Shown: positions 7,010-30,285, counted from the stretch's first letter. The stretch is DNA of 34,684 nucleotides from Candidatus Rifleibacteriota bacterium (GCA_012517355.1 JAAYVD010000115.1:1-34684); one strand, 5' to 3'. Program-made: numbers and translations. The notes: generated from the sequence alone by a model not told the origin.

Positions 7010-7503
7010 TCTCACCCGGCTGCCCGGGTCCCCCAGGATCCCCGAATGGTCTGGGAACCCGGGCGGCCGCCCTCCGGCCGGGCCCCCCCTGCCGAGGCAC
7101 CTCCATCTGGCCTCCTCGCGAATCCAGGGGGTTGCCGCCATTCTCCCTCATCATCGATCCGAAGATTCTCGACACTCCAGCATCCCGACTGACGCATCCA
7201 TTCCTCTTTCTGCATCAACCCATCGATTCTGACAAGGCCGATCATGCTTGCGACTCCCTTCGCCACTTTCCCCCTGTTTTCCTTTTCCCCTGCCGTCTTG
7301 GAGGTTTCTGTCGAAATGCTGAAGTCTCAGATTTTCTGAGGAATGGTGATTCGCGCAGGCCTCGTCCCCATCGACCCGTCAGGCCGAAGCAGCCCGGAAA
7401 CCGCTTCAGAGCGCTTCGTGAGGATTGCCTGGGGGCGGGACGGAGTTGCGGGGAAGGGACGGATTGCGTTACCCTGTGGCATCCAACCCCGGAGTCCCGG
7501 CCG
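7010..7503. other. 494-nt intergenic region with 3' hairpin and weak promoter
   Basis: No gene is supported here. Just after the propeller gene, ACCCGG (7014-7019) and CCGGGT (7024-7029) form a short GC hairpin that could end the upstream transcript. From about 7130 to 7400 the sequence is clearly less GC-rich than the rest of the window and contains CTCAG-ATTTT-CTGAG as a small dyad. Near the next gene, TTGCGG (7446-7451) and TTACCC (7469-7474) are 17 bases apart and could be a weak promoter. A small RNA cannot be excluded but nothing shows one. Confidence 0.5.
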
Positions 7504-8376
7504 ATGACTCGCCCCGCCCCTCCCCGGTATCCCTGGCCTCTCATTGCCGTCCTGCTGCTGCTGTGCGTGCAGGTATTCTTGGCCGGGCCCGCTTGCGGCC
7601 AGGGGTCTGCCCCGGCGACCCCGCCGGTCACCGTCCGGATCGGCCTGGTCTACACCGCCACCCAGGCGGTGGCCCTGGCGGGCGGCCAGGACCCGCTGGA
7701 CCAGTATCGGAAGGCCATCGCCCGGCCCGGGGTCGAGATCGTGCCTCTGCTGGTGAGCGATTCCGAATTCGTCACCAACGAGAAGACCCGCCTGCTCGAC
7801 GGCCTGGTCCTGCCGGGGGGATGCGATATCGATCCGGCCCTGTATGGCGAGGAACCCCACCATCTGCTGGAAACCGTCGACCGGTCGCTCGATTCGCTCG
7901 AGTTCTTCCTGCTCGAGTTCACCCGCAAGATGCGCCTGCCGGTGCTGGGCATCTGCCGCGGCCACCAGGTGATCAACGTCTTCCTGGGCGGCTCCTTGTA
8001 TCAGGATCTTCCCTCGCAACTCGACGGGGAGGTCAGGGTGTCCCACCGCCGGAAGGAAGACGGCGAGACCCGGCGGGTGGCGCATGGCATCGCGGTGGCG
8101 ACCGGGTCCCGGCTGTTCGAGGTGTTCGCCACCGCCACCTGGGACGTGAACTCCTTCCACCACCAGTCGGTCAAGAAACTGGGCAACGATCTGCGTGCCA
8201 CGGCCTGGAGCGCGGATGGGGTCGTCGAAGCCGTCGAAGGGACGACCGACTGGTATGTCCTCGGCGTCCAGTTTCACCCCGAAAAAGACCTGCAACGGGA
8301 TCCGCGCCTGGCCCTGGTGTTTTCCGCCTTCGTCGAGGTGGTCCGCGACCGGCGGGCCCGCGGCGACGGCCGCTGA
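7504..8376 (+). CDS. exported class I glutamine amidotransferase-like (peptidase C26) hydrolase
   Basis: The 290-residue protein belongs to the gamma-glutamyl hydrolase/PuuD-like branch of class I glutamine amidotransferases. The family marks are LVLPGGCDIDP around residues 101-111, the nucleophile elbow GICRGHQ with Cys151, the substrate-loop region NSFHHQ, and the His258/Glu260 pair in QFHPE, so the catalytic triad is complete. Cytosolic PuuD cleaves gamma-glutamyl-GABA. Here an N-terminal hydrophobic segment (about 11-32, ending GPACGQG) predicts export, and Cys31 could be a weak lipobox, so a gamma-glutamyl peptide or folate-type polyglutamate hydrolase acting outside the cytoplasm is inferred. 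GGAG is nine bases upstream of the ATG. The next small gene starts 26 nt downstream. Confidence 0.82.
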   Translation: MTRPAPPRYPWPLIAVLLLLCVQVFLAGPACGQGSAPATPPVTVRIGLVYTATQAVALAGGQDPLDQYRKAIARPGVEIVPLLVSDSEFVTNEKTRLLDGLVLPGGCDIDPALYGEEPHHLLETVDRSLDSLEFFLLEFTRKMRLPVLGICRGHQVINVFLGGSLYQDLPSQLDGEVRVSHRRKEDGETRRVAHGIAVATGSRLFEVFATATWDVNSFHHQSVKKLGNDLRATAWSADGVVEAVEGTTDWYVLGVQFHPEKDLQRDPRLALVFSAFVEVVRDRRARGDGR

Positions 8377-8402
8377 CCGGCCGGAACGGGGAAGGAGCGA
8401 TC

Positions 8403-8579
8403 ATGGGCGGAGAGAAGAAGGTCCATACGATGTGCGGCCTGGGCAAAGACCTGAAGGGAAAGGCCCTGGCGGAATTCGTCGAGGTGGTGCGCAAGCCGAG
8501 GTTCTACTGCGAGCGATGCCACCGCGTCGCCCGCCGGAAGAAGAACCTCTGCCAGCCGGTCCGTCTTCCGAAGCCCTGA
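8403..8579 (+). CDS. small CxxC protein of unknown function
   Basis: The 58-residue basic protein is preceded by AAGGAG and starts 26 nt after the C26-type hydrolase gene, so it is probably translated from the same message. Cys36 and Cys39 form a CERC pair, Cys50 follows ten residues later and Cys11 is near the N-terminus, with His40 beside the pair. This is enough to bind one zinc ion or form a redox pair. From memory, similar short proteins with a YxCxxC-xRVA pattern and a later LCxP occur as uncharacterised proteins in other bacteria; that was not checked. No function is assigned. Its stop codon lies inside the left arm of a strong hairpin. Confidence 0.7.
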   Translation: MGGEKKVHTMCGLGKDLKGKALAEFVEVVRKPRFYCERCHRVARRKKNLCQPVRLPKP

Positions 8580-8827: not shown

Positions 8828-11800
8828 GTGTCAGATGCATTCGCGCAGGCGGCGGCGAAGCTGACCTCGCCCCAGGAGGCCGAGCGCAAGGCGGCCGTGC
8901 TCGAATTGTTCGGGCTGAAGGATCCGCGCGCCATCGACCTGCTGGCCAAACGGGTCGATGCCGACACCGCGGCCGAGGTCCGCTACCAGGCGCGTCGAGC
9001 CTATTACCTGCTGCGCGACGAGATTCCCAACAACCCGGCCGAGCCGTTCCTCGAACTGCCTGACGGCATCAGCCTCGACGATCTCGAGAAGATCCTGCAC
9101 GACGAGAACCCCCGCATCCGCCATGAGGGCATCGTCCTGGCCGAGAAACTCGATGCCGGTTCCGTCGCCCCCTTCCTGCGGTCGGCGATCGCCGTCGAGA
9201 AGAAGATCGCCCTGCAGGCCGAACTGATCGTCGCCCTCGGGCGGGCGGGCGCGCGGTGCGACATCCCCACCCTGGCCGCCTTCCTGGCCGCGCCCGAACC
9301 CCGCATGCGGATGACGGCCATCGAGGCCCTGAACCGCATCGGCGGGGTCGAGGCCCTCGAATACGTGGTTCCCCTGCTGCGCGACGCGGACAACCGCGTG
9401 CGGGCCCTGGCGGCGAAGGTCCTGGAACCCCTCGACACCGGGGACATGCTGAAGATCCTGAAGAACCTCGCCCTGGCCCCCGAGCCCGCCTCGCGCGACG
9501 CGGCCATCTTCACCCTGCAACGGTACAAGGCGCCCCAGGCCGCCCGCCTGCTCGGCCACCTGGCCCTCAACGACCCCGACCCGGGGCTGAAGGAAAAGGC
9601 CCGCGCCGCCCTCGAGGCCATGGCCAAGGGCAGCGAGACCGCCCGCAAGGTTCTCGAGTCCATGACCCGGCCCCCCGAGCCGGAGGACGACCCCAACGCC
9701 CCGGCCGTCGTGCCGCTGGAGGGGAACACCCTGCCGGCCCCTCCCGACCCGAACGCCCCCCCAGGCTCTGCCGCCGCCGCGCAGACCAAGGTCATGGTCG
9801 TTCCCGGGCTTCCCAAGAAGCTGGTCAAGAGCATCTGGTGGGGCGATCCCGCCCAGCGGGCGGCCGCGCTGAAGGAGGCGGCCCCCCTGCTGCGGGCCGA
9901 GCATCTGCCGTTTTTGCTCCTGCGCCTCGACCGGGAGGACGATCCGCGCGCGCTGTCGCAGGTGGTCACCCTGATCGGCAAGCTGCATTCGGTCCTGGCC
10001 TACGCGGCGATCATCAAGCATTTCAAACACCCTGACGACCGGGTGCGGGCCAACGCCATCGACGCCGCCATGGCGATCGACCCATCGACCACCCCCGACC
10101 GGGTGACCGGCTTTTTGAAGGACCCCAACAACCGGGTGCGGGCCAGTTCCATCATCGCCTGCGCCACCCGCCCCGGATTCGAACCGCTGGCCTTCGTGCG
10201 CGACCTGGCGAGCGGGGACGACCCCGCCTGGCGGCGCAGCGCCCTGTTCGTCATCAACCGGCTCAAGCGGCCCGCCTTCCTGGAGATCCTCGAGTTCCTG
10301 GTGAAGGACGATGACATGGAGGTCCGGCACCTGGCCTACAAGGCCATCTCCGACTATGCCGGCCGGGGTGTCAAGGGGGCCCGCGAACTCGCCGAGACCG
10401 CCGGCAAGGCCCTGGCGCGGGAACAGGGCGCGAGCGGCAAGTTCGACCAGGACTTCCACAAGGCCATGAACGAGATGCGGGCCCCGCCTCCGCCCAAGAA
10501 GGTCGTGCGGCCAGGCGGGAAGTCGGCCACCGAGGAGTTCGGGGAACAACTGCTGGGCCGCGACGGGATGAAACAGGCCGGCCAGAAGGTGAAGGATTTG
10601 CAGGCCCAGGCCAAGGTGGCGACCGACAAGGTCAAGGAATCCCTGGCCACCGTGCACTGGCGGGAGCTGCCCGCCCGCCTCGCCGGGAACCTGCCTCTGG
10701 CGCTCATCCTGGCGGCCCATGTGCTCAGCGTGACGGTCCATTTCCAGGTGGGGGCGAGCTGTCGCCTGCTGTCCCTGTTGGCCGCCGGGCTGGCGGTGGG
10801 GGCCGCTGGCCTCGGCCGGGCGCGGCAGGTTCCGGCGGTCGCCGGTCTCCTGCCCCTGCTCCTGCTGTTCGCCCCCCTCGTCGCCGTTCCGCTCGGCATC
10901 CAGGATGCCGATCTCACCGGTGGCCCGCGCCAGGACGGCGGGCCGGAAACCGGCCCTGCCTCAACCGTTGCCGGCCTGGCCTCTCCCGCCACCGGCCCCC
11001 TTCCGGGGCGCCCCGCTTCGTCCCCGGCCGTGGTGAAGGAGCCTGTCCCGCCGGTGGAGCCGCCCGACGGCCCCAAGCCAAAAGGTCCCACCGTCAAGCT
11101 CCTCGAACCGGCCGCTGGCACCCGCATCTCCGGCGACCTGCTGATCAAAGCCAGGATTCCCGTGAAGGCGAAAACCGTCGAGTTCTTCTTCGAGAAGACC
11201 CATCTGAAGACCTTCGAGAACCAGGCCGAGGGGACCTGCGAGCACCTCGTCCCCGCGGGCGACCCGCTGACCCCCGGGCGACGGGTGGTCAAGGTGGTGA
11301 TGACCGACGAGACCGGCCGCCGGACGCAGGACCAGGCGGTCGTCGAGGTCCTGAAACCGCTGGTGAGGGTGGCCATCGGCCATCCCCCCGATGGCGGCGG
11401 CTATTGGCGCGACGACCGGTTCGTCGCCACGGTGACCGGGGAGGGCTGCGACCAGGTCGAGTTCCTCCTCGACGGGGCGGTGATCCGGTCCTTCCCCGCC
11501 GACTCGACCGCGTCGGCCGCCCGGTTCGAGCTGCCGGTGCCGGTGGCCACCCTGAGCGTGGGCCAGCACGCGTTCGAAGTCCGCGCCACCATGGACGACG
11601 GGCGCCTGGCCACCGATTCCGTCTCCTTCCGGGCCCTGGTGCCCATCCCGACCGTCCGGTTCGTCTCGCCGAAGGACACCGAGGAGGTGTTCGGCCAGGT
11701 CCAGGTCGTGATCGAGGCGGACAGCGGCTGGAAGGAGACGGCCATTCGCGAGATGGTCTGGTATCTCGACGGAGTGCGGAAGGACGCGACCGCCTCGCCG

Positions 11801-13027
11801 ACCATCCAGGCCACCTGGGAGACCGCCGACGTGCCGACCGGCCCGCACGAACTGGTGGTCACCATGGTCAACGAGCTCGGCCGCACCGCCTCGGCGACGG
11901 TGCGCGTCAACCTCATCCAGCCGGTGTTCTCAGTGACCGTCAAGGGCATCGCGCCCGGTCAGGTGCTGACCGGCGATGCCATGGCCACCGTGGAGGTGGT
12001 CGACGAGACCCCCGGGGCGAAGATCGACCGGGTGACCATCAGCCTCGACGGCAAACCCTACCAGGTGTCGAAGGAGAAGTCCTTCCTGTTCACCCTGCGC
12101 ATCGACGACCTGCTGCCCGGGAAACGGAACCTCGCCGTGGAGGCGGTGCGCACCGACGGCAAGACCGCCAAGACCGTCCTGCCGGTCGTCGCCAATCCGC
12201 GTGACCGGCGCACCGTGTTCTTCGCCGCGGCCGACGGCGCCGGCCGTGCCGTGCCGGTCACCGACCTGGCCAGCCTCACGCTGGTGGTGAAGGAGGACGG
12301 GAAGGCCGTCGGCAGCTACACCCTGCAGCCGGCCGGCGCGGTCCCCCTCCGGTTCGGGATCCTGCTGGACCAGTCGGCCAGCATGAAAGAGGACCAGAAG
12401 CTGGTCCTGGCCAAGAAGGGGCTCGCCGCGTTCATCGACGCCCTGCGTCCCGAGGACCGGGCCTTCCTGGTCACCTACTCCGACACCGCGCAGGTGGCCG
12501 CGGAATTCACGGGGGAACCGACGAAGCTGCACCAGGAGCTGGAATATCTTGCCCCCAAGCGGGGCAGCGCCCTCCTCGATGCGGTGAACCTCGGGGTGGA
12601 ACTCGCCAATCGGGCCGGCGGGCACACCGCCCTGGTCCTGCTGGCCGACAGCGGCGATGAGGCGGTCAACGGGCGGGCCAGGGCCAGCCTGCACCAGCCG
12701 GGGGCGATCCTCGAGTTCGCCAAAAACGCCCACGTGCAGATCTTCACCGTGAGCCTGGGAACCCTCGCCCCGAGCCTGGTAGGCGATGCCGAGGCGGAAC
12801 TGCGGGCCCTGGCGAAAGAGACCGGCGGCCGCCACCTGCGGGTGGCCAACCTGGGCGAGCTGCCGGCCGTCCTGACCGGGCTGATGCGCGAACTGCAGGG
12901 GCGGGCGCGGCTGTCCTTCCGGTCCCCGTCGGGAGACCCCGACGGGAAGTGGCACACCCTCGAGATTGCGGCTCCCGGCCGTCCCGACCTGAGGTTCCTC
13001 TACAAGCCCGGGTATCAGGCCCGGTAG
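8828..13027 (+). CDS. giant HEAT-repeat / three-TM / Ig-like / von Willebrand A fusion protein
   Basis: The 1399-residue product starts with GTG, ten bases after GGGAGG. HEAT-type helical repeats fill about residues 1-280 and 335-520, separated by a Pro/Ala linker. A charged helical segment follows, then three hydrophobic spans at about 621-639, 646-664 and 671-693. After a Pro-rich linker come several beta-rich, Ig-like modules (about 760-1150), recognisable by repeated VEFFFE/VEFLLDG/VWYLDG strands and P-x-G-x-H/R turns. A vWA domain ends the protein (about 1165-1375), with the MIDAS motif DQSAS at 1181-1185 and Asp1274 in LLADSGD. There is no signal peptide. Three spans would put the HEAT part in the cytoplasm and the Ig/vWA part outside, a plausible trans-envelope sensor, scaffold or adhesion protein. 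This topology is inference, and no enzyme domain is visible. It stands alone between a terminator-like hairpin and an intrinsic terminator. Confidence 0.85.
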   Translation: MSDAFAQAAAKLTSPQEAERKAAVLELFGLKDPRAIDLLAKRVDADTAAEVRYQARRAYYLLRDEIPNNPAEPFLELPDGISLDDLEKILHDENPRIRHEGIVLAEKLDAGSVAPFLRSAIAVEKKIALQAELIVALGRAGARCDIPTLAAFLAAPEPRMRMTAIEALNRIGGVEALEYVVPLLRDADNRVRALAAKVLEPLDTGDMLKILKNLALAPEPASRDAAIFTLQRYKAPQAARLLGHLALNDPDPGLKEKARAALEAMAKGSETARKVLESMTRPPEPEDDPNAPAVVPLEGNTLPAPPDPNAPPGSAAAAQTKVMVVPGLPKKLVKSIWWGDPAQRAAALKEAAPLLRAEHLPFLLLRLDREDDPRALSQVVTLIGKLHSVLAYAAIIKHFKHPDDRVRANAIDAAMAIDPSTTPDRVTGFLKDPNNRVRASSIIACATRPGFEPLAFVRDLASGDDPAWRRSALFVINRLKRPAFLEILEFLVKDDDMEVRHLAYKAISDYAGRGVKGARELAETAGKALAREQGASGKFDQDFHKAMNEMRAPPPPKKVVRPGGKSATEEFGEQLLGRDGMKQAGQKVKDLQAQAKVATDKVKESLATVHWRELPARLAGNLPLALILAAHVLSVTVHFQVGASCRLLSLLAAGLAVGAAGLGRARQVPAVAGLLPLLLLFAPLVAVPLGIQDADLTGGPRQDGGPETGPASTVAGLASPATGPLPGRPASSPAVVKEPVPPVEPPDGPKPKGPTVKLLEPAAGTRISGDLLIKARIPVKAKTVEFFFEKTHLKTFENQAEGTCEHLVPAGDPLTPGRRVVKVVMTDETGRRTQDQAVVEVLKPLVRVAIGHPPDGGGYWRDDRFVATVTGEGCDQVEFLLDGAVIRSFPADSTASAARFELPVPVATLSVGQHAFEVRATMDDGRLATDSVSFRALVPIPTVRFVSPKDTEEVFGQVQVVIEADSGWKETAIREMVWYLDGVRKDATASPTIQATWETADVPTGPHELVVTMVNELGRTASATVRVNLIQPVFSVTVKGIAPGQVLTGDAMATVEVVDETPGAKIDRVTISLDGKPYQVSKEKSFLFTLRIDDLLPGKRNLAVEAVRTDGKTAKTVLPVVANPRDRRTVFFAAADGAGRAVPVTDLASLTLVVKEDGKAVGSYTLQPAGAVPLRFGILLDQSASMKEDQKLVLAKKGLAAFIDALRPEDRAFLVTYSDTAQVAAEFTGEPTKLHQELEYLAPKRGSALLDAVNLGVELANRAGGHTALVLLADSGDEAVNGRARASLHQPGAILEFAKNAHVQIFTVSLGTLAPSLVGDAEAELRALAKETGGRHLRVANLGELPAVLTGLMRELQGRARLSFRSPSGDPDGKWHTLEIAAPGRPDLRFLYKPGYQAR

Positions 13028-13167: not shown

Positions 13168-13213
13168 TTGCGGGGATGGGCGGGTTCGTGATATATGACT
13201 GACCGGTCAGTCA
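13168..13213 (+). promoter_or_regulatory. efflux operon 1 promoter and TetR operator
   Basis: TTGCGG (13168-13173) lies 17 bases before ATATAT (13191-13196), or 18 before TATATG (13192-13197). The -10 runs straight into the perfect 18-bp palindrome TGACTGACCGGTCAGTCA (13196-13213), the standard form of a TetR-family operator. Its position over the -10 and start site predicts that the TetR protein encoded next blocks polymerase and represses itself and the pump genes until a ligand binds. Confidence 0.75.
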
Positions 13214-13257
13214 GAAACCCGCGGGCCGTTGCCCACCATCATCGCAGGAGTCGCCGC

Positions 13258-13839
13258 ATGGGACGCCCCCCTTTCGACAAACGGGAAAAGATCCTCGCCG
13301 CCGCCATCGACTGCTTCAGCACCCAGAGCTTCCAGGACGTGAAGCTCGACCGGGTGGCCGAACAGGCAAAGGTGGCCAAGGGAACCATCTACCTCTATTT
13401 CCAGAGCAAGGAAGACCTGTTCTGCGAGTGCCTCCTGCACGACCACGACGGCATCTACCGCCGGGCCGAAGCCATCATCGCGGGGAAGGGGACGGCCGCC
13501 GCGCGGCTGCAGAAGCTGGTCGACCTCCAGGCCGAGGCCTTCGCCCGCAAGGGTCCGATGATCCAGCAGATGATCCAGATGGGCCCCACCTTTCCCCTGA
13601 AGTCCGCGGTCATCACCCGCGTGCACGCGCACCTGCGCCGGGTTGTCGACATCAACTCCCGCCTGTTCCGCGAAGGCATCGATTCCGGCGAATTCTCCGG
13701 CCGCTTCAGCCCCCGGCAGATGGCCGTCATCCTCTTGCAGGTCTTCGATCTCAACGTGAAGTTCCGGATGTTCCAGGTGCCGGCGCTGGCGCCCAGAGAC
13801 GTCTCGGCCGCCCTGGTCAAGCTGTTCGGGCACCAATAA
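13258..13839 (+). CDS. TetR/AcrR family repressor of efflux operon 1
   Basis: The 193-residue protein has the canonical N-terminal TetR helix-turn-helix: KREKILAAAIDCFS, then VKLDRVAEQAKVAKGTIYLYFQSKEDLF at about 22-49 of the protein. A divergent ligand-binding helical domain follows. The ATG at 13258 has AGGAG seven bases upstream; an ATG at 13195 in the same frame is rejected because it lies in the operator. The gene is the first of a TetR-TolC-HlyD-RND operon and the operator palindrome is directly upstream, so self-repression plus repression of the pump is the expected mode. The inducer is unknown. The outer membrane channel gene starts 11 nt after the stop. Confidence 0.93.
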   Translation: MGRPPFDKREKILAAAIDCFSTQSFQDVKLDRVAEQAKVAKGTIYLYFQSKEDLFCECLLHDHDGIYRRAEAIIAGKGTAAARLQKLVDLQAEAFARKGPMIQQMIQMGPTFPLKSAVITRVHAHLRRVVDINSRLFREGIDSGEFSGRFSPRQMAVILLQVFDLNVKFRMFQVPALAPRDVSAALVKLFGHQ

Positions 13840-13850
13840 GGAGACATTCC

Positions 13851-15557
13851 ATGCGTTCCACCGCACTCCCCCTCTCCCTGATCCCCGTCCTTCTCGTCCT
13901 GGCCCTCATGGCTGGGCACGGCCTGGCCCAGCCCGCCTTCGCGGCCGGCCTGGGTTCTGCCGCGACCGAGGCGGCGGGGGTGGGCCGTGCCGAGAAACGG
14001 CAGGTCCCCGGCGGGCCCGCGGCCAACGACCTCGGGCCGGCGGCCATTGACCTCGGGCCCGCGGCCGCTTCCCCGGAAGCGACCGGGGAAAGCACCAGCG
14101 GAGCCGCCACCGGAACCACCACCGGAACCACCACCGAAACCGGCACGGAGACCGCCGGAGAAGCCCTCGCGGACGGTGCGCCGGCCATCACCGGGGACGC
14201 GTCCGTGGTCGGGATTCCCGCGGACCCGAAGACCGCCGGGGTCGAAGGCCGGGCGGCGGGTGACCCCTCCCTGGCCAGTTGGCCGGTCGACCTGGAAGAC
14301 CTCCATATCGAGGACGTCCTGCGCCTGGCCCTGGAGCGCAACCGGACCGTCATCGGGGCTCGCGAACAGATCGAGGTGGCCGAGGGCCAGGTGAAGCAGG
14401 CCCGCGCCGTCGGGGGGACGAAGCTGACCGGGAAGTTCACCCAGACCCGGCTCGACGGGGTCGGCTCGGCGAATCTGGGCGGCCGCAGCGTCAAGATGGG
14501 CAACGAGGACGTGCAGAAGGCCTACGTGGAAATGGCCCACCCGCTCTTCCTGGGCCGGCGGGACAAGGCGGCCCTCGCCGCCGCCCGCCTGGGCCGGTCG
14601 GCCGCGGAGGCCGGGTTCACCCATGCCGGGCAGCAGGTGCTGCAACTGGCCACCATGAAATGGTTGTCCTGGCTGTATGCCCGCGAGGTGGAGAAGGTCA
14701 GCCGGAAGGATCTCGACCTGGCGAAGGCTCATCACAAGCTCGTTTCCGCCCGGGTCCGGCAGGACCAGGCCTCGAAGTTCGAACTGCTGCGGGCCGACGT
14801 GCGGCTGGCCCAGGCGCGCAGCAAGCTGCGCCAGGAGACCAACAGCGTCGACCTGGCCCGTCTCGACCTGTTGCGGGTGCTGTCGCTGCCTCCCACCCTG
14901 CCGGTCGCGACGCGGGACCGCCTGGCCCTCCTCGAGTTCCCCACCGACCTGGAACACGACGCGTCCGAAGCCGTCGGGCTGCGGGAAGACCTGCGCATCA
15001 AGCGCCTGGAGGCCCAGATGGCCCGGCAGGGACTGCGGGCCGCGCGCGGCGAACGGCAGCCGACCCTGAATGCCTTCGGGCAGGCGGGCAACGAGTTTCC
15101 CTCCTCGAAAGGGGGCCTGGGCGGTGTCACCCGCAAGGGCTACTGGAACGTCGGCGTGGCGGCGGAGCTTCCCCTTATCGACGCCGGCCAGCGCCAGGGC
15201 AGGATCCAGGAGGCGCGGGCGAAGGTGGCCGTGGCCGAGAACGCCCTCCAGGACGCCCTCGAGAAGGCCCAGGTCGAGATCCGGCAGGCCCTGCTGAACC
15301 TGCAGACGGCCCGGGAGGTCGTCGATGCCCAGCAGGAAGCGCTCAAGCAGGCCGAGGAGGCGCTCCGGCTGGCCGGGGTCAAATACGAGAACGGGATGTT
15401 CACGCAGGTCGAGATGTTCGACGCGGAGAACGCCTTCCTCAATACCAACCTGCAGTATCTGCAGGCCGTGTTCGCCCATCACCAGGCCCGCGTGTCCTAC
15501 CTGCTCGCCACCGGCCGTCTCGGCCGGGACCTGCTCGCCCCGCCGTCCAAACGCTGA
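13851..15557 (+). CDS. TolC-family outer membrane efflux channel 1
   Basis: The 568-residue protein has a signal peptide (cleaved somewhere between Ala26 and Ala32), then a Pro/Ala/Gly/Thr-rich linker of about 110 residues, then two outer-membrane-efflux (OEP) repeats from about residue 150 onward. The OEP part starts LHIEDVLRLALERNRTV and shows the long heptad helices typical of TolC, including QARSKLRQETNSVDLARLDL and ALKQAEEALRLAGVKYENG. It should form a trimeric channel through the outer membrane that docks with the membrane fusion protein and RND pump encoded downstream. Most TolC homologues have no such linker between signal and barrel; part of it is encoded by a 12-bp tandem repeat. 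AAGGAG precedes the ATG, and the fusion protein gene begins 13 nt after the stop. Confidence 0.9.
   Translation: MRSTALPLSLIPVLLVLALMAGHGLAQPAFAAGLGSAATEAAGVGRAEKRQVPGGPAANDLGPAAIDLGPAAASPEATGESTSGAATGTTTGTTTETGTETAGEALADGAPAITGDASVVGIPADPKTAGVEGRAAGDPSLASWPVDLEDLHIEDVLRLALERNRTVIGAREQIEVAEGQVKQARAVGGTKLTGKFTQTRLDGVGSANLGGRSVKMGNEDVQKAYVEMAHPLFLGRRDKAALAAARLGRSAAEAGFTHAGQQVLQLATMKWLSWLYAREVEKVSRKDLDLAKAHHKLVSARVRQDQASKFELLRADVRLAQARSKLRQETNSVDLARLDLLRVLSLPPTLPVATRDRLALLEFPTDLEHDASEAVGLREDLRIKRLEAQMARQGLRAARGERQPTLNAFGQAGNEFPSSKGGLGGVTRKGYWNVGVAAELPLIDAGQRQGRIQEARAKVAVAENALQDALEKAQVEIRQALLNLQTAREVVDAQQEALKQAEEALRLAGVKYENGMFTQVEMFDAENAFLNTNLQYLQAVFAHHQARVSYLLATGRLGRDLLAPPSKR
14109..14144 (+). 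repeat. 12-bp tandem repeat in TolC1 linker
   Basis: ACCGGAACCACC occurs twice in perfect tandem (14109-14120, 14121-14132) and a degenerate third unit follows to 14144. It encodes Thr-Gly-Thr-Thr units of the disordered linker between signal peptide and channel domain. Twelve-base units keep frame, so copy number could vary between strains. Confidence 0.6.
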
Positions 15558-15570
15558 AGGAGTCGCCGCC

Positions 15571-16998
15571 ATGAAGACCTCCAACTCTCCAGACCGACAC
15601 GACGTCGGAAGTGCCACTTTGCCGCCAGGGTGGGTGGCGCGAAATGCCCGTTCCGCAACCCGCCAGGGGACGGCCCTGGCCCGGAACCTGTTGCTGCTCG
15701 GCCTCGTCATCGCCCCGGCGATCCTCCTGACCGGGCCGGCCGGGAACGGACCTGCCGCCGGGCGGGCCCTGGGCGCCGCCGAGGCCGCCTCGCCGACCAC
15801 CGTGGCCGGACCCGCGTCCGGCCAGCCGCAGGCGACGCCGGTCATCGCGCAGAAGGTCACCACCGGCGACATCCACCTGCAGCTCGTGACCTCGGGCGAG
15901 GTCGAACCCGCTCTCGGGGTCGATCTCTTCCCCAAGATCAGCGGCCAGATCGTGCAATTCAACGTCAGCGAGGGGTCGGTGGTGAACGAGGGCGACCTGG
16001 TGGCCGAGATCGACCACCGCATCCAGGACACGCAGCTGGAGCAGGCCGAGGCGGCCCTCACCGTGGCCCAGGCAGCGGTCGACCTGCAGGAGGTGATGGT
16101 CAAGACCGCCCAGTCGGGGGTGACCGCCGCCCGGGCGCAGGCCGACGCGGTGCGGGCCCAGGTGACCAACCTGACGGCCAGCCGGGCCCGCCTCGAGAAG
16201 TTGCACAAGGAGGGAGCCATCTCCCGGCAGCAGCTCGACGACGTGACCGCCCAGCATGACGCGGCACAGGCCCAGCTGGTGGCAGCCACCTCGAATGTCA
16301 ACCAGGCCACCGACGGCATCCTGTCGGCCCAGATGAACCTGAAGATGAAGCAGGCGCAGCTGGTGCAGGCCAAAGCCAACCTGCACGCCGTGCAGGTCAC
16401 GCGCGAGGACGCCTTCATCAAGGCCCCGTTCCAGGGGATCGTCACCCGCCGGCATCTCGACCCGGGCGCCATGGCCAACCCTAGCCAGAAGCTTCTGCGG
16501 CTGGAGAAGATGAACCCGGTGAAGGTGATCGGCACCCTGGTCGAGAAGAACCTGCTGCTGCTGCAGCCGGAGCGCACCGAAGCCCGGGTCCGCACCGACA
16601 GCATCGCCGAGGAGTTCATCGGCACCGTGGCCAAGATCTATCCGGCCATCGACCCCAAGACCCGCACCGGGCAGTTCGAGGTGATCATCGACAACCCAGA
16701 GCGGAAGCTGCGCTCCGGCATGTTCGCCAACATCCGCCTGTTCCTGGAAACGGCCAAGGGAGCGGTGGTGGTTCCGCGGGATGCCCTGCTCGCGCACAAT
16801 GGCGACCGGGCCGCCATCCGGGTCACCCCGGAGGGGATCGCGGAAAAGGTGAAGGTCCGGACCGGCATCGTCCAGGAGGACCGGGTGGAGATCCTCGACG
16901 GGCTGCAGCCGGGTGACACGATCGTCACGCAGGGGCTGGAGTTCATCCGGGTCGGGGCGCCGGTCAAGGCGATCATCCAGCAGGAAGACCAGCCATGA
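15571..16998 (+). CDS. HlyD/AcrA-type membrane fusion protein of efflux system 1
   Basis: The 475-residue periplasmic adaptor has an N-terminal hydrophobic segment after a charged leader of about 38 residues (RNLLLLGLVIAPAILLTG). A biotinyl-lipoyl-like first half follows (LFPKISGQIVQFNVSEGSVVNEGDLVAEID), then a long alpha-helical hairpin of about 140 residues (repeated Gln/Ala heptads), the second lipoyl half (IKAPFQGIVTRRHLDPGAMA), and beta-barrel and membrane-proximal domains ending at VRVGAPVKAIIQ. No lipobox cysteine is visible, so it is probably anchored by the hydrophobic helix. It bridges the RND pump and the TolC-type channel. The stop codon overlaps the RND start as ATGA at 16995-16998, a sign of translational coupling and fixed stoichiometry. 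Confidence 0.93.
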   Translation: MKTSNSPDRHDVGSATLPPGWVARNARSATRQGTALARNLLLLGLVIAPAILLTGPAGNGPAAGRALGAAEAASPTTVAGPASGQPQATPVIAQKVTTGDIHLQLVTSGEVEPALGVDLFPKISGQIVQFNVSEGSVVNEGDLVAEIDHRIQDTQLEQAEAALTVAQAAVDLQEVMVKTAQSGVTAARAQADAVRAQVTNLTASRARLEKLHKEGAISRQQLDDVTAQHDAAQAQLVAATSNVNQATDGILSAQMNLKMKQAQLVQAKANLHAVQVTREDAFIKAPFQGIVTRRHLDPGAMANPSQKLLRLEKMNPVKVIGTLVEKNLLLLQPERTEARVRTDSIAEEFIGTVAKIYPAIDPKTRTGQFEVIIDNPERKLRSGMFANIRLFLETAKGAVVVPRDALLAHNGDRAAIRVTPEGIAEKVKVRTGIVQEDRVEILDGLQPGDTIVTQGLEFIRVGAPVKAIIQQEDQP

Positions 16999-19900
16999 AC
17001 CTCTCCGTCTACGGGGTGAAGTGGCCGGTCACCACCTCGATGATCTTCCTGGCCATCGTGGTCCTGGGCGGGTTCGCCTGGACCCAGGTGGGCATCGACC
17101 TGATGCCCGACTTCGAGATTCCCGCCATCACCATCATCACCTCCTATTCCGGGGCGGGCCCCCAGGAGGTGGAGTCCCGCATCACCGAGCCGATCGAGGA
17201 GACGGTCTCGACGGTGCAGAACGTGGACGAGGTCACCTCCACCTCCTTCGAGGGGGTGTCGGTGGTGACCGTCAAGTTCAACTGGGGCATCGACCTGGCC
17301 GAGGCCACCAACGACGTGCGCGACAAGCTGGACCTGGTCAGCAAGCGGCTTCCCGACAAGGCCGAGAAGCCGATGATCTTCAAATTCAACACCTCGATGA
17401 TCCCCGTCGTCATCCTCGGGGTGACCGCGGAGGAGAGCTGGGACAAGCTGGCCCGCATCGTCGACAAGCGGGTCATCGAACAGCTCAAGCGCATCCCCGG
17501 CGTGGCGACGGCCATGGCCCGGGGCGGCGACACCCGCGGCATCCTCGTCCAGCTGAACCGCGAGCGGATGCAGGCCACCGGCCTGACCGGGCGGCAGATC
17601 GTCACCACCCTGTCGAACCAGAACCTCGACAACCCGGGCGGGCATCTGCGGAGCGGCACGTTCGAGTACCTGATCCGCACGCCCGAGGAATTCAAGAAGG
17701 TCGATGACATCGGGGCGGTCGTGGTCGCCAAGACCCCGGGCATCGTGCGGTTGCGCGACGTGGCCGAGATCAAGGACGGGTTCCTCGAGAAGGTCGGCGA
17801 TTTCGTGATGAACGGCAAGCGGGCCATCGGGGTCATCGTCCAGAAGCAGTCCGGGGCCAACACGGTCGCCGTCTCGAAGGCGGTGGTGGAGGGCATTCCG
17901 GCCATCCAGGCCCAGCTGCCCGCCGACGTGAAGCTGCAGGTCTTCTTCGACACCTCCGAGTTCATCCGCAACACCATCCGGAACCTCACCTTCACGGTCC
18001 TGGTGGGCGGCATCGTCGTGTTCCTGGTCATCTTCTTCTTCCTGCGCGACCTGCGCGCCAGCCTGATCGTCTGCACCACCATCCCGACCTCGCTGATCAT
18101 CACCTTCCTGCTGATGTACCTGGCCGGCTACACGATCAACCAGATCACCTTGTCGAGCCTGGCCATCGCCATCGGCATGGTGGTCGACAACGCCATCGTG
18201 ATCATGGACAACATCAAGCGCTATCTCGACCGCCGGGTGTCGTCCCGGGAAAGCGCCATCTGGGGCTCGGTCGAGATGGGCACCTCGGTCATGGCCTCGA
18301 CCCTGACCACGGTCGTCATCTTCCTGCCCATCATCTTCACCGGCGGCATCACGCAGATCATCTTCGGTCAGCTGGCCACCATCGTCGTCATGGCCCTGCT
18401 GGCCTCGTTGTTCTCGGCCCTGATGCTGACCCCCATGATGTGCTCGTTCCTGCTCAGGCCGGCCCGGGCCGATCGCCCTGCCTCGCGCACGTGGTATCTC
18501 GAGGCCCTGGAAGGCGCCTACCGGCGGTTCCTGGAGTGGGCCCTCGATCACCGGTTATTGGTGGTGGCCACTTTGGTGGGCATGCTGGTGTTGTCGCTCG
18601 GCCTGATGCGGATGGTCGGGACCGAGTTCATTCCCGAACAGGACCAGGGCCGGATGGTCATCCGCTACGAGATGCAGACGGGAACGCGGCACGAGATTTC
18701 CGGGGAGATCGGGAACCGGATCGCCGCGGTCGTCCGGGAAAAGGTGCCGGAACTCCAGGCCGTCGTCGTGCGGTCGGGGCGGAGCAGTGATTCCATCTAT
18801 GCCGCCATCTCGGGTTCCAAGGAAGCCTCCCACACCGGGCAGGTCGAGTTGCGGCTCGTTCGCAAGGAGCAACGGAAGCGCGGGATCAAGCAGATCATCG
18901 AGGACCTGCGGCCCGAGCTGGGAAAGATCCCCGGGGCGGTCATCCGGTTCGACGCGGGCGATCCCCTGGCCAACATGATGGGGGCCGGCGGAGCCGCCTT
19001 CACCCTCAACCTTTACGGGCACGACCTGACGATGGGCATGGCCTATGCCCAGGACCTGGTGAAGGCCCTGGGGTCCGTCAAGGGGCTGAAGGACCTGGAG
19101 ATCAGCCAGCAGCTCGCCCAGCCCGAGCTGCAGGTGCTGGTCGACCGGGAGAAGGCCTCGAGTCTCGGCCTGAACGTGACCGACGTCGGCAAGACGGTGG
19201 AGCTCTGCTTCAGCGGCGACGACACCGTGAAATATCGCGAGGAGGGCGAGGAATACGATATCGAGGTGCGCCTGCGGGAGCAGGACCGGGTGAAATTCGA
19301 CGACCTGGGCCAGGTGCCCCTGCAGAGCCCGACCGGGCAGACGGTGCGGGTGGAGAACGTGGCCCAGGTGAAGCAGGCGTTCGGCCCCACGCGCATCACC
19401 CGCAACGAGCAGGAACGGTTCATCCAGGTCACCGGCCAGGTCTACGGCCGGGGTTCGGGGGAGGTCGCCAATGACGCGGTGGCGGTCATCAACTCGATTC
19501 CGCTGCCCCCCGGCTTTTCCTGGCGGTTCGCCGGGAACGAGGAGGAGCGGCGGAAGTCCTTCTTCCTCATGATCGAGGCCGCGGCGCTCGGCATGATGCT
19601 GGTCTACATGGTCATGGCCTCGCAGTTCGAGTCGCTGCTGGCCCCGTTCATCATCTTCCTGAGCGTCCCCTTCGGGTTCACCGGGGCCGTCCAGATCCTC
19701 GCGCTGACCGGGCATCGCGTTTCGGTCGTTTCCCTGCTGGGGTTCATCATCCTGATCGGGATCGTGGTCAACAACGGGATCGTGCTGATCAGCTACATCA
19801 ACATCCTGCTCCAGCGCCGGATGGATCTGCGGGAGGCCCTTCTCACGGCCGGACAGCGGCGGCTGCGCCCCGTGCTCTCGACCACCCTGACCACCATCCT

Positions 19901-20090
19901 GGGCATGGCCCCCATGGCCATGTCGACCGGCGAGGGGTCGGAGGTCTGGGTGCCTCTCTCGTTGAGCGTCATCGGCGGCCTGGTCATCTCGACCGCCATG
20001 ACCCTGGTGCTGATGCCGGTGCTCTATTCCCTCTTCAGCCGTCGCCTGCTCAAGACCCTGGGGGTGACCCAGGCCAAGGCCAGAGGATGA
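16995..20090 (+). CDS. RND (HAE1-type) multidrug efflux permease 1
   Basis: The 1031-residue protein is of full RND length with 12 predicted spans and two large periplasmic loops. It opens with the conserved VKWPVTTSMIFLAIVVLGGFAWTQ and GIDLMPDFEIPAI segment. TM4 contains GMVVDNAIVIMDN, so the first of the two AcrB proton-relay aspartates is kept (Asp398) and the second is Asn399. TM10 has GIVVNNGIVLIS with Asn926 and Asn927 where AcrB has Lys940-Asn941. This D-N/N-N pattern is common in the SwrC-like branch of HAE1 pumps and still allows a proton-coupled mechanism. Substrates (drugs, lipids, surfactants) cannot be named. Translation is coupled to the fusion protein by ATGA overlap. Confidence 0.93.
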   Translation: MNLSVYGVKWPVTTSMIFLAIVVLGGFAWTQVGIDLMPDFEIPAITIITSYSGAGPQEVESRITEPIEETVSTVQNVDEVTSTSFEGVSVVTVKFNWGIDLAEATNDVRDKLDLVSKRLPDKAEKPMIFKFNTSMIPVVILGVTAEESWDKLARIVDKRVIEQLKRIPGVATAMARGGDTRGILVQLNRERMQATGLTGRQIVTTLSNQNLDNPGGHLRSGTFEYLIRTPEEFKKVDDIGAVVVAKTPGIVRLRDVAEIKDGFLEKVGDFVMNGKRAIGVIVQKQSGANTVAVSKAVVEGIPAIQAQLPADVKLQVFFDTSEFIRNTIRNLTFTVLVGGIVVFLVIFFFLRDLRASLIVCTTIPTSLIITFLLMYLAGYTINQITLSSLAIAIGMVVDNAIVIMDNIKRYLDRRVSSRESAIWGSVEMGTSVMASTLTTVVIFLPIIFTGGITQIIFGQLATIVVMALLASLFSALMLTPMMCSFLLRPARADRPASRTWYLEALEGAYRRFLEWALDHRLLVVATLVGMLVLSLGLMRMVGTEFIPEQDQGRMVIRYEMQTGTRHEISGEIGNRIAAVVREKVPELQAVVVRSGRSSDSIYAAISGSKEASHTGQVELRLVRKEQRKRGIKQIIEDLRPELGKIPGAVIRFDAGDPLANMMGAGGAAFTLNLYGHDLTMGMAYAQDLVKALGSVKGLKDLEISQQLAQPELQVLVDREKASSLGLNVTDVGKTVELCFSGDDTVKYREEGEEYDIEVRLREQDRVKFDDLGQVPLQSPTGQTVRVENVAQVKQAFGPTRITRNEQERFIQVTGQVYGRGSGEVANDAVAVINSIPLPPGFSWRFAGNEEERRKSFFLMIEAAALGMMLVYMVMASQFESLLAPFIIFLSVPFGFTGAVQILALTGHRVSVVSLLGFIILIGIVVNNGIVLISYINILLQRRMDLREALLTAGQRRLRPVLSTTLTTILGMAPMAMSTGEGSEVWVPLSLSVIGGLVISTAMTLVLMPVLYSLFSRRLLKTLGVTQAKARG

Positions 20091-20649: not shown

Positions 20650-23600
20650 CTACTTGGAGGTCAGGCGGGTGACGCCGTCCCAGTCGGGGGGCGGGGGGGC
20701 GGCGGCGTAGAAGCGGCAGCGCTCGAGGTACATCTGCACGCACTTGTCGGCGACGCCGGGGCGGACGCATTCCCCGAAGAGGCGTCCGGCTTCGGCGAAC
20801 TTCCGCTGGTAGTACAAGGTGATGGCCTCTTCGTACCTGTCCAGGATGGTTGACTTGTACTCGAGCTCCGGGGCGGGGGCCCCGCTGAAGACCTCGTGGA
20901 TCGCCACGGCGCGGTCCTTCCCCTTGACGGCGATCCGGTCGACGGTGCGGATGAGGAAGTCCTGGCGCCGGACCAGCCGTTCGAGGGTCGAATCGGTGAT
21001 CAGGATCCCGGCGCCGTAGACCTTGGTCTGACCCTCGATGCGCGAGGCCAGGTTGACGGCGTCGGAGATGACGGTGGCGTTGATGCGGTGGCGCTCGCCG
21101 ACCGTCCCGAGCATGAGGGTGCCGGTGTTGAGGCCGATGCCGATCCGGATCGGCTCCAGGTGCTCCTGCCGCCGGATCGCGTTGAACCGGTCGACCGCCT
21201 GCAGGGAGCCGACGGCCGCCCGGACCGCGTCGTCGGGCGAGGTGGGGAACAGGGCCATGACGGCGTCGCCGATGTACTTGTCGATGAACCCGTGGTGCTC
21301 GCGGATGACCGGCCCGACGTTGCCGAGGTAGCCGTTGATGAAGTCGATGTTCTCCTTCGGGGACAGTTTCTCGGAGATGTTGGTGAACGACCGGATGTCC
21401 GAGAAGAAGATGGTCATTTCCTTCTGCACCTGGTCGCCCAGGCCCACCTCGAGGATGTCGGGCTTGCCCAGGATGGTCAAGAACTCGTGGGGGACGAACC
21501 GGTTGGCGGCCTCGTTGAGGCGTTGCTGGAAGGCCATCTCCCGGGCGTGCTGGGCCTTCTTCCAGGCGACGTAGCCGGAGACGGAGCCGAAGAGGGCGGC
21601 CGCATAGAGGCAGTAGGCCCACCAGGTCTTCCAGGGCGGGGGCGGGATGACCAGGGTGATCGCGGTGCCGGTCTCGTTCCAGACCCCGTCGTTGTTCGAG
21701 GCCTTGACCCGGAACACGAAGCGGCCGCCGCTGAGGTTGGTGTAGGCGGCATAGCGCCGGTTGCCGCAGTGGATCCAGTCGGAGTCGAAACCTTCCATCT
21801 TGTAGGCATACCGGTTGCGGGTGGGGGCGACGAAGTCGAGGGCGGCGAACTCGAACGAGAAGAAGTTGTCGCGGTAGGACAGGTGCAGCTCGGGGCGGTC
21901 GGCCAGTTCCCGGGCGGTCAGCACCACCTGGTCGAGCTTGCGGAAGGTGGTCAGGACGACGGGCGGGGGCCGGGTGTTGTAGGTGATCCGGTCCGGGTAG
22001 AAGGCGTTCACCCCGTTGATGCCGCCGAAGAACATCTCGCCGTCGGGGGCCTGGCAGAACGACCCCATGTTGAATTCGTTGCTCTGGAGCCCGTCGTCGA
22101 CGGAGAAGGTGCGCGCCTGGCCGGTGGCGGGGTCGAGTCGGGTGAGGCCGTTGTTCGTGCTCATCCAGAGGGCGCCCTGGCGGTCGGCCAGCACGCCGTA
22201 GACGGTGTTGTTCGAGAGCCCGTCGCGTTCCGAAAACAGCCGGCAGCGGCCGGTCGTCCGGTCGAACCGGTTCAGCCCGTTCTTGGTGCAGACCCACAGG
22301 GCGCCCTGGGCGTCCTCGAACACGGAATACACGCGGTTGTGCGAGAGCGAGTCGGGCCGGGCGGGGTCGTGGGCGAACAGGTCGAACCGGCCCGTGGCGG
22401 CGTCGTAGCGGTTGAGCCCGTTCTCGGTGCCGAACCAGAAAAGGCCCGTCGAGTCCTGGAACACCGTGCGCACCCGCTTGTGGCTCAGGCTGTTCTTCCC
22501 GGCCACCGGGACGAGAAACGAGAAGGTGGCGGGGTCGGCCTCCTCGCGGGGCGCGGAACTGGCGGTTGGCGTCGCCATCCCTGGCGGCACGGGGGCATTG
22601 CCGAGGTCTTGTCGGTCTTGGCCCGAGACGGAGTCGGAGCCGGGGCCCGAGCCGGGGACAGGGCCCGAGCCGGGGACAGGGCCCGAGCCGGGCACGGGGC
22701 CAGGGACGGGGCCGGGGACGAACCGGCAGACACCGCCGTAGGTCGCCAGCCAGAGGTTCCCCTCGCGGTCGCCGGTGATCTTCATGATGTCGCGGCAGTC
22801 CGGGGAACCCAGGAAACGCAGGTCGTCGAGGAAGCGGGTGAACCGGCCGGTCTGGCGGTCGAACCGGTTCAGCCCGCTGTCGGTGCCGATCCACAGGGTC
22901 TGGTGGGCATCCTCGAAGATGGCCTGGACGACGTTCGAGGTGAGCGAGGTCGGGTCGTCCTCGCGGCTCCGGAAGGTGGTGAAGGTGCCGGCCGTGCGGT
23001 CCCAGCGGCAGAGGCCCTCGCTCTCGGTGCCGAACCAGACCATCCCTGCGCTGTCGACGAAGATGGCCCAGACGCTGTTCTGGGGAAGGGAACCGGGATC
23101 GGCGGGGTCCCGTTGGATGTGGGCGAACTTCGGCCGTACCAGCTTGTTCAGCCCACCGGTGAAGGTGCCGAACCACAGGGTGCCGTTGTCGTCCTCGAAG
23201 ATGTTCATGACGTCGTTGTTGGACAGGCTGAACCGGTTGGCGGCGTCCTCCTTCCAGGAGGAAAACGTCTGGCGGTCGCGGTCGAAGAGGTTCAGGCCGC
23301 CTTCGGTGCCGACCCAGAAGCGGCCGGAACGGTCTTCGTGGAGGGCGGTGACCCGGTTGTGGCTGAGGCTCGTCGGGCTCTGCGGGTCGTGCCGGAAGAC
23401 GGTGAAGGTGCGCTTTTCGCGGTCGAGCAGGTTCAGTCCGTTCCTCGTGCCGATCCACAGGTTGCCCCGACGGTCCTCCCGGATCGCGTTGACGCAGTCG
23501 TCGCTCAGGCTGGAGGCGACGGCCGGGTCGTGCGGGAAATGAAGGAACCGGCCTTCCTTCTCGAGGAAGAGGTTCAGGCCGTTCTCGCGGGTGCCGATCC

Positions 23601-24183
23601 ACAGGCTGCCGGAGGCGTCCCGGCAAAGGGCGGTGATGCGGTCGCCGCTGATCGAGCCGGGGTTCCCCGCCTCGTGCCGGAACTTGGTGGATGTCTGGCG
23701 GACCGTGTCGAAGCGGTTCAGGCCGTTCTGCTCGGTGCCGACCCACAGGGTGGTGCCGTCGGGGTCGGCGAGCAGGGTGAAGATGAAATTGTCGTTGACG
23801 GCATCGGTGTTGGACGGGTCGTAGCAGAAGGTGGCGAACCGTCCGGTCTTCGGGTCATACCGGTTCAGGCCGCGTCCCCGGGTGCCGATCCACATGACGT
23901 CGTGGCGGTCGATGGCCAGGCAATAGACGTAGTTCTCGCCGAGGCTGTCGGGGTTGGCCGGGTCGGTCTTGTACTGGACGAACCCGCTGCCGTCGTACTT
24001 GTTCAGGCCGTCCTGGGTGCCGATCCACAAAAAGCCGGTTTTGTCTTGTGCGATGGCGTTGACGGTGTTCTGCGACAACCCGTCCTCGATGGTCAGGTGG
24101 TGGAATTTGAGATTTTCGGCGGCGGGGAGCGGCGAAGCCGCCAGGAGGAAAATCAGGAGAAGTCGCAGGAGTTTTCTGGGCAT
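20650..24183 (-). CDS. double beta-propeller / Y_Y_Y / TM sensor adenylate cyclase
   Basis: The 1177-residue protein has a signal peptide (about 1-22). It then carries 14 Reg_prop-type repeats (LWIGT-x-x-GLNR-Y/F-D), enough for two seven-bladed propellers as in hybrid two-component sensors of Bacteroidota. A Pro-Gly linker interrupts the repeats between numbers 10 and 11. A Y_Y_Y domain (about 737-845), one membrane span (about 851-872) and a class III nucleotide cyclase domain (about 890-1090) follow, then a short helical tail. The metal-binding Asp929 (FFSDIRSFT) and Asp973 (KYIGD) are present. Lys969 and Thr1037 sit at the base-selecting positions, with Asn1044 and Arg1048 at the transition-state positions, so an active adenylate cyclase is predicted. 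The periplasmic propellers would sense a polymer or surface ligand and control cyclic AMP. GAGG is ten bases before the ATG. It is probably in an operon with the hydrolase 29 nt upstream. Confidence 0.92.
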   Translation of the reverse strand: MPRKLLRLLLIFLLAASPLPAAENLKFHHLTIEDGLSQNTVNAIAQDKTGFLWIGTQDGLNKYDGSGFVQYKTDPANPDSLGENYVYCLAIDRHDVMWIGTRGRGLNRYDPKTGRFATFCYDPSNTDAVNDNFIFTLLADPDGTTLWVGTEQNGLNRFDTVRQTSTKFRHEAGNPGSISGDRITALCRDASGSLWIGTRENGLNLFLEKEGRFLHFPHDPAVASSLSDDCVNAIREDRRGNLWIGTRNGLNLLDREKRTFTVFRHDPQSPTSLSHNRVTALHEDRSGRFWVGTEGGLNLFDRDRQTFSSWKEDAANRFSLSNNDVMNIFEDDNGTLWFGTFTGGLNKLVRPKFAHIQRDPADPGSLPQNSVWAIFVDSAGMVWFGTESEGLCRWDRTAGTFTTFRSREDDPTSLTSNVVQAIFEDAHQTLWIGTDSGLNRFDRQTGRFTRFLDDLRFLGSPDCRDIMKITGDREGNLWLATYGGVCRFVPGPVPGPVPGSGPVPGSGPVPGSGPGSDSVSGQDRQDLGNAPVPPGMATPTASSAPREEADPATFSFLVPVAGKNSLSHKRVRTVFQDSTGLFWFGTENGLNRYDAATGRFDLFAHDPARPDSLSHNRVYSVFEDAQGALWVCTKNGLNRFDRTTGRCRLFSERDGLSNNTVYGVLADRQGALWMSTNNGLTRLDPATGQARTFSVDDGLQSNEFNMGSFCQAPDGEMFFGGINGVNAFYPDRITYNTRPPPVVLTTFRKLDQVVLTARELADRPELHLSYRDNFFSFEFAALDFVAPTRNRYAYKMEGFDSDWIHCGNRRYAAYTNLSGGRFVFRVKASNNDGVWNETGTAITLVIPPPPWKTWWAYCLYAAALFGSVSGYVAWKKAQHAREMAFQQRLNEAANRFVPHEFLTILGKPDILEVGLGDQVQKEMTIFFSDIRSFTNISEKLSPKENIDFINGYLGNVGPVIREHHGFIDKYIGDAVMALFPTSPDDAVRAAVGSLQAVDRFNAIRRQEHLEPIRIGIGLNTGTLMLGTVGERHRINATVISDAVNLASRIEGQTKVYGAGILITDSTLERLVRRQDFLIRTVDRIAVKGKDRAVAIHEVFSGAPAPELEYKSTILDRYEEAITLYYQRKFAEAGRLFGECVRPGVADKCVQMYLERCRFYAAAPPPPDWDGVTRLTSK
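22643..22720 (-). repeat. 18-bp tandem repeat encoding Pro-Gly linker in propeller sensor
   Basis: The plus-strand unit GGGCCCGAGCCGGGGACA is present as two exact tandem copies (22643-22660, 22661-22678) and a third, diverged copy plus remnants to about 22720. It encodes PVPGSG units on the minus strand. The block sits between propeller repeats 10 and 11 and adds about 60 flexible residues together with flanking low-complexity sequence. Confidence 0.75.
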
Positions 24184-27121: not shown

Positions 27122-27180
27122 CCTCCATCTCACGAACCCCCGGCCAGGGGGGTCGCGCACCTGGCGAAAGGGACTCCATC

Positions 27181-28995: not shown

Positions 28996-29011
28996 CCCGG
29001 GAGGTCCACCC

Positions 29012-30280: not shown

Positions 30281-30285
30281 GCCGT

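What the first reader, a model, noticed from the sequence alone, without database searches (positions are those of the whole stretch)
8828..13027. HEAT-TM-Ig-vWA fusion as a possible trans-envelope system in one protein
Cytosolic-type HEAT repeats, three spans, several Ig-like modules and a MIDAS-bearing vWA domain occur in one 1399-residue chain. An odd number of spans would join an external adhesion domain to an internal scaffold, an architecture I do not know as a described family.
Basis: partly seen in the sequence, partly recalled or inferred. Interest (0 to 1): 0.62.

Follow-up and report, generated by a model that had tools for sequence, protein, structure and literature searches.

The report
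Membrane-spanning HEAT–Ig–vWA scaffold protein family
A little-studied group of bacteria (Ozemobacteraceae) makes a single protein that probably holds a scaffold inside the cell and, across the inner membrane, carries a stalk ending in a possible adhesion domain; the parts are known, this assembly appears undescribed, and its job is unknown.

Summary
ORF 8828-13027 is one intact 1399-residue protein: two HEAT lobes, a long helix running into three membrane helices, a disordered linker, four Ig-like domains and a C-terminal vWA domain. The same order, with 47-54% identity, occurs in five other Ozemobacteraceae genomes of three genera (one cut by its contig end), so it is not unique to this genome. 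Three spans are predicted in all five orthologues; in the window protein the first is weak on one of two scales. Charge distribution and relatives support HEAT inside, vWA outside.

The three spans match the first three of a seven-span domain in sister proteins (7TM, often an extra vWA, the same Ig stalk and vWA). These occur in five other genomes of the phylum, in three families; no genome was found with both forms. The HEAT–3TM form therefore looks like a lineage-specific remodelling: a HEAT cassette gained, four spans (an even number) lost, sidedness kept.

"Trans-envelope" goes too far. The organism looks diderm, so the protein most likely crosses the inner membrane and projects into the periplasm. 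The metal site (MIDAS) is altered in two of five orthologues, so adhesion is unproven. New variant of a known kind; most likely a receptor or tether.

The parts
8828..13027 (+). Whole gene: HEAT-HEAT-helix-3TM-linker-Ig x4-vWA protein, 1399 aa
   Evidence: ORF; coding-type GC by codon position; orthologues
8831..9670 (+). HEAT lobe 1 (residues 2-281), predicted cytosolic
   Evidence: Pfam HEAT_2; AlphaFold2 helices 2-280
9671..9790 (+). Proline-rich, partly disordered linker between the HEAT lobes (282-321)
   Evidence: pLDDT mostly below 60
9815..10363 (+). HEAT lobe 2 (330-512), the most conserved region (67% mean pairwise identity)
10379..10480 (+). Helix 518-551 after HEAT lobe 2
10526..10681 (+). 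Cytosolic part of a 74-residue predicted helix (567-640) leading into TM1, with conserved KSATEEFGEQLLG..DG motif at its start; residues 610-612 have pLDDT below 50
10682..10747 (+). TM1 (about 619-640); weak on the Hessa-type scale in the window protein
10763..10822 (+). TM2 (about 646-665)
10832..10897 (+). TM3 (about 669-690); preceded by an inside loop with two basic residues in all six HEAT-form proteins
10934..11083 (+). Disordered linker (703-752), predicted extracytoplasmic
   Evidence: pLDDT below 50 over model residues 119-166
11084..11362 (+). Ig-like domain 1 (753-845)
11363..11641 (+). Ig-like domain 2 (846-938)
11642..11920 (+). Ig-like domain 3 (939-1031), Pfam Big_7
11921..12205 (+). 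Ig-like domain 4 (1032-1126)
12206..13024 (+). C-terminal vWA region (1127-1399), TIGR03436 / VWA_2
12368..12382 (+). MIDAS DxSxS (residues 1181-1185); further MIDAS residues Ser1247 (12566-12568) and Asp1274 (12647-12649)

Best explanation
It is an inner-membrane receptor or tether. Two HEAT lobes in the cytosol act as a docking platform, joined by a long helix to a three-helix membrane anchor. Outside (most likely in the periplasm) a flexible linker and four Ig-like domains form a stalk that presents a vWA domain to a ligand in the cell wall or on the outer membrane, so that ligand state outside and partner state inside are coupled in one chain. The HEAT-3TM form arose inside Ozemobacteraceae by adding a HEAT cassette to, and removing four spans (and an extra vWA) from, a 7TM-vWA-Ig-vWA ancestor. 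Supported here by sequence and prediction: domain content, three spans, N-inside/C-outside, recurrence, relation to the 7TM family. Inferred: direction of remodelling, periplasmic site, ligand binding, cytosolic partner, coupling. The confidence is for topology plus the general receptor/tether role; topology alone I would put at about 0.85.
For: Full-length orthologues in G001, G002, G007, G014 and one cut at its contig end in G010. Three KD spans in all six proteins. Basic residues: N-side loops 4 vs 1 in the window protein; 10 vs 4, 8 vs 1, 13 vs 3 in the 7TM relatives; two basic residues in the TM2-TM3 loop in all six. TM1-3 match the first three spans of the 7TM relatives (hhalign E 2.8e-14; 1.8e-6 against a three-row 7TM profile; one unrelated HEAT-7TM control 0.73). 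3 and 7 are both odd, so remodelling kept sidedness. In other phyla related Ig/vWA regions sit behind an N-terminal hydrophobic segment of signal-peptide type. Cytosolic HEAT lobe 2 is more conserved (67%) than Ig/vWA (45-55%) or TM (33%), as expected for a conserved inside partner.
Against: No conserved gene neighbour. MIDAS is altered in G014 (D to G) and G002 (third residue S to T), with Ser for Thr in genus g1, so ligand binding through a metal is not general. Both models have low pTM (0.43, 0.38), so relative domain placement is not informative. TM1 of the window protein is weak on one hydrophobicity scale. No experimental data exist for any member that I could find.
Confidence: 0.6

Rival explanations
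1. It works like the Bat-type vWA proteins: a membrane-anchored vWA protein of an envelope stress or protein-assembly complex, with HEAT as the cytosolic assembly surface and no adhesion.
For: The closest solved vWA relatives by sequence include a 'hypothetical membrane spanning protein' (4rck) and an 'aerotolerance-related membrane protein' (4jdu). BB0173 of Borrelia is an inner-membrane protein with three TM helices and a periplasmic vWA (PMC5700661).
Against: No NCBIfam Bat hit in the window protein; only sub-cut-off Bat hits in relatives. No MoxR ATPase among the neighbours that were scanned. In BB0173 the vWA lies between TM2 and TM3, here after all spans.
Confidence: 0.2
2. It is a signalling receptor of a Ser/Thr kinase pathway: the ancestral 7TM-vWA-Ig-vWA protein senses outside and its kinase partner sits inside; in the HEAT form the HEAT lobes replace kinase docking.
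For: In G038 the 7TM form lies directly downstream of a Ser/Thr kinase with an FGE-sulfatase domain; in G029 a kinase gene lies about 3 kb away. A long helix joins HEAT to TM1.
Against: No kinase found next to the HEAT-form genes that were checked. The kinase pairing is a single close case; G029's is on the other strand with a transporter gene in between.
Confidence: 0.12
3. Both halves lie on one side: one hydrophobic segment (TM1 in the window protein) does not span, leaving two spans.
For: TM1 of the window protein does not pass the Hessa-type threshold used.
Against: All five orthologues have three spans on both scales, the charge pattern fits N-in/C-out, and 7TM relatives also have odd parity.
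Confidence: 0.08

Closest known systems
TIGR03436 'acidobact_VWFA' VWA domain-containing proteins
   Same: The vWA region scores above the curated cut-off (86.4 vs 81.25 bits)
   Different: The model covers only the vWA region; the Ig/vWA relatives I looked at in other phyla have a signal-type N-terminus and no HEAT or multi-span anchor
BatA/BatB-type inner-membrane vWA proteins (e.g. Borrelia BB0173, PMC5700661; PDB 4jdu)
   Same: BB0173 is an inner-membrane protein with three spans and a periplasmic vWA with MIDAS
   Different: vWA lies between TM2 and TM3, no Ig stalk, no HEAT, gene beside a MoxR ATPase
7TM-(vWA)-Ig-vWA family of Ozemobacterota found here (G005, G008, G029, G037, G038)
   Same: Homologous TM1-3 and Ig/vWA module, odd span number
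   Different: No two-lobe HEAT N-terminus (only a short HEAT-like stretch, not significant, in G029); four further spans; an extra vWA in G005, G008, G038
Two-lobe HEAT proteins with other membrane modules in the same phylum (L093, L094, L095, L039)
   Same: HEAT lobes 29-36% identical to the window protein
   Different: C-terminal multi-span domain unrelated by profile (tested for L093-L095), no Ig or vWA found

Membership tests
TIGR03436 acidobact_VWFA | Profile score above curated cut-off | tested here: met
   86.4 bits vs 81.25
Metal-binding vWA (MIDAS) | DxSxS, Thr, Asp motif intact | tested here: inconclusive
   D1181/S1183/S1185/S1247/D1274 in the window protein; D to G in G014, S to T in G002; metal binding not testable here
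HEAT repeat proteins | HEAT_2 score above cut-off and tandem helical pairs | tested here: met
   114.4 bits vs 27.7; predicted helical repeats
BatA/BatB | Bat-family profile above cut-off | tested here: not met
   No NF047508 hit for the window protein; relatives 22-40 bits vs cut-off 380
BatA/BatB | Neighbouring MoxR AAA+ ATPase | tested here: not met
   Flanking genes scanned are peptidase C26, TetR, OEP, HlyD, RND; not every window ORF was scanned
7TM-vWA-Ig-vWA family (this work) | Homologous membrane domain and Ig/vWA module | tested here: met
   TM1-3 hhalign E 2.8e-14, Ig/vWA 25-33% identity to the window protein
7TM-vWA-Ig-vWA family (this work) | Seven spans | tested here: not met
   Three spans; the 7TM profile finds nothing in HEAT-form genomes at E 0.001
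Adhesins | Binds a ligand or surface | not testable with these tools
   Needs binding assays

The most novel reading that the evidence does not exclude
A one-chain bacterial counterpart of integrin-style coupling: a cytosolic HEAT scaffold and an external MIDAS vWA domain linked through a long continuous helix, so that inside binding changes outside affinity or the reverse.
Probability: 0.12. Interest if true: 0.75.

Novelty: new variant of a known kind. Interest (0 to 1): 0.42.

Why it matters
It gives a clear example of domain shuffling across a membrane: a scaffold added and four spans removed with sidedness apparently kept. It also brings to light a related 7TM–vWA–Ig–vWA family whose seven-span domain had no Pfam hit. 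If the coupling idea holds, it would be a compact model of how a bacterial cell links an inside scaffold to an outside binding domain.

Tried and rejected
Single-protein scan of genome contigs found nothing; the alignment scan found five orthologues, all in Ca. Riflebacteria/Ozemobacteraceae or a related MAG. Conserved operon: rejected; only G001 and G002, near relatives, share neighbours; my simple gene caller works poorly on the lower-GC genomes G007 and G014, so their neighbourhoods are weakly tested. HEAT in the G029 relative: profile comparison with the HEAT lobes not significant (E 0.047), so not counted as the same order. HEAT hits in G003 and G004: a HEAT–multi-span protein and a contig-end fragment. 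Fold search of the C half: low TM scores (0.10-0.21 by query length), mostly generic beta-domain matches, not informative on function; of the N half: generic HEAT/karyopherin/PP2A-A matches. No paper on this architecture found.

Full report
What is there. ORF 8828-13027 (+) encodes 1399 residues from a GTG. Its GC by codon position is typical of coding sequence, and orthologues begin at matching places. Pfam finds HEAT_2, Big_7 and VWA_2; NCBIfam finds TIGR03436 above cut-off. AlphaFold2 on window-and-locus alignments gives HEAT lobe 1 (2-280), a poorly ordered linker (282-321), HEAT lobe 2 (330-512), a helix 518-551, a poorly ordered stretch, a 74-residue helix 567-640 that runs into the membrane, further membrane helices 646-665 and 669-686, a disordered linker, four Ig-like domains and a vWA domain. 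Mean pLDDT is 80-81, pTM 0.38-0.43, so domains are credible but their mutual placement is not.

Where else it occurs. The genome is a member of Ozemobacteraceae (Ca. Riflebacteria / Ozemobacterota): the named records behind the orthologues are Ca. Ozemobacter sibiricus BY5, a Ca. Ozemobacteraceae MAG, two Ca. Riflebacteria MAGs and bacterium CG2_30_54_10. I take the window's own placement from its kinship to these. Among 40 genomes of the phylum, the HEAT–3TM–Ig–vWA order is in G000, G001, G002, G007, G014 and, cut at a contig end before the vWA is complete, G010: three genera. Among about 340 genomes of other phyla in the same kind of search, only parts of the Ig/vWA module were found at E 1e-30, and the five loci of these that I opened each have an N-terminal hydrophobic segment of signal-peptide type and no multi-span anchor.

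Related form with seven spans. G005, G008, G029 and G038 encode proteins with seven predicted spans (G029 by hydropathy; fewer of its spans pass the Hessa-type scale) and the Ig-like stalk; a C-terminal vWA is read in G005, G029 and G038, and in G008 it is on another contig. G038's frame appears broken before its second vWA. G037 has matching fragments on two contigs. G005, G008 and G038 also carry an extra vWA before the Ig-like domains, which looks degenerate in G005. The window protein's TM region matches their first three spans with hhalign E 2.8e-14 (two-row profile) and 1.8e-6 (three-row profile); one control, the C-terminal membrane domain of the HEAT–7TM proteins, gives 0.73. A search for the 7TM domain finds it in those five genomes, plus two weak partial matches (G031, G035), and in none of the HEAT-form genomes. 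A FastTree tree of the Ig/vWA region separates HEAT-3TM and 7TM sequences with local support 1.000 (nine sequences, unrooted). Because the 7TM form is in three families and the HEAT form in part of one, I infer that the HEAT form is derived. The HEAT lobes have relatives in the same genomes joined to other membrane modules, so the cassette is plausibly borrowed. In the own genome more than 50 different open frames carry a HEAT_2 match (my count from the list); of 25 such frames examined, 9 have predicted membrane segments. A HEAT fusion is thus not rare in this organism.

Sidedness. Spans are three in all six HEAT-form proteins by hydropathy. On a Hessa-type scale the five orthologues again show three, the window protein two, its TM1 falling outside the threshold. 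Basic residues near the membrane are 4 vs 1 on the N side in the window protein and 10/4, 8/1 and 13/3 in three 7TM relatives, for which I set the span limits by hand. The inner loop between TM2 and TM3 has two basic residues in all six. HEAT has no signal peptide by inspection. All this fits HEAT inside, Ig/vWA outside. An Omp85 homologue is present and TolC/HlyD/RND genes lie next door; LptD was not found by Pfam. The cell is therefore probably diderm and 'outside' probably means periplasm. Four Ig domains and a vWA could span much of a periplasm, but this is an estimate, not a measurement.

Function. No neighbour is conserved. HEAT lobe 2 is the most conserved part (67% mean pairwise identity), Ig and vWA less (45-55%), TM about 33%. 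I read this as a conserved inside partner and a faster-changing outside ligand; this is inference. The MIDAS of the window protein is complete with Ser for Thr, but G014 has lost the first Asp and G002 has Thr for the last Ser, so metal-dependent adhesion is not a family-wide property. My preferred mechanism is a receptor or tether coupling an outside ligand to an inside HEAT platform, at 0.6 including topology.

Against known kinds. It is a member of the broad TIGR03436 vWA family by score. It resembles Bat proteins such as BB0173 (three TM helices, periplasmic vWA, inner membrane; PMC5700661) in anchoring but fails the Bat profile and the MoxR-neighbour test, and its vWA position differs. 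Papers searched did not describe a HEAT–TM–Ig–vWA protein; this library holds open-licence papers only. I file it as a new variant of a known kind.

Noticed in passing
L038 5335-9297, L041 6529-9429, L044 4713-8867, L054 2325-5096: A conserved seven-span domain (GFW..CL..Y.SLGF.VG...P.E..GFL..P..QP..L.LN.VLP..M.R..IPN) with no Pfam hit, joined to Ig-like and vWA domains in three families of the phylum.
   Followed up: partly
L054 326-2245 and 2325-5551: In G038 the 7TM-vWA-Ig protein lies directly downstream of a Ser/Thr kinase with an FGE-sulfatase domain; the second vWA is in another frame, which looks like a frameshift or assembly error.
   Followed up: partly
window 13195-20090 and 26896-33462: A TetR-TolC-HlyD-RND efflux set beside the finding; about 6.8 kb further on, an outer-membrane efflux gene and an ORF at 30286-33462 that resembles an RND pump by BLAST (it matches the same L048 gene as the first pump).
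   Followed up: no
window 20650-24183 (-): A large protein with 11 Reg_prop propeller repeats, a Y_Y_Y domain and a C-terminal adenylate/guanylate cyclase: looks like a propeller sensor with a cyclase output.
   Followed up: no
own genome: Very HEAT-rich genome: 153 HEAT_2 matches in more than 50 different open frames.
   Followed up: partly
window 8403-8579 (+): Possible small cysteine-containing protein (58 aa, MGGEKKVHTMCGLG...CERC...C) just upstream of the finding, at the end of the ORF listed at 7425-8579.
   Followed up: no
L038 3192-4313: A second vWA protein (373 aa) lies two genes upstream of the G005 7TM form, separated by an adenosine deaminase-like gene.
   Followed up: no
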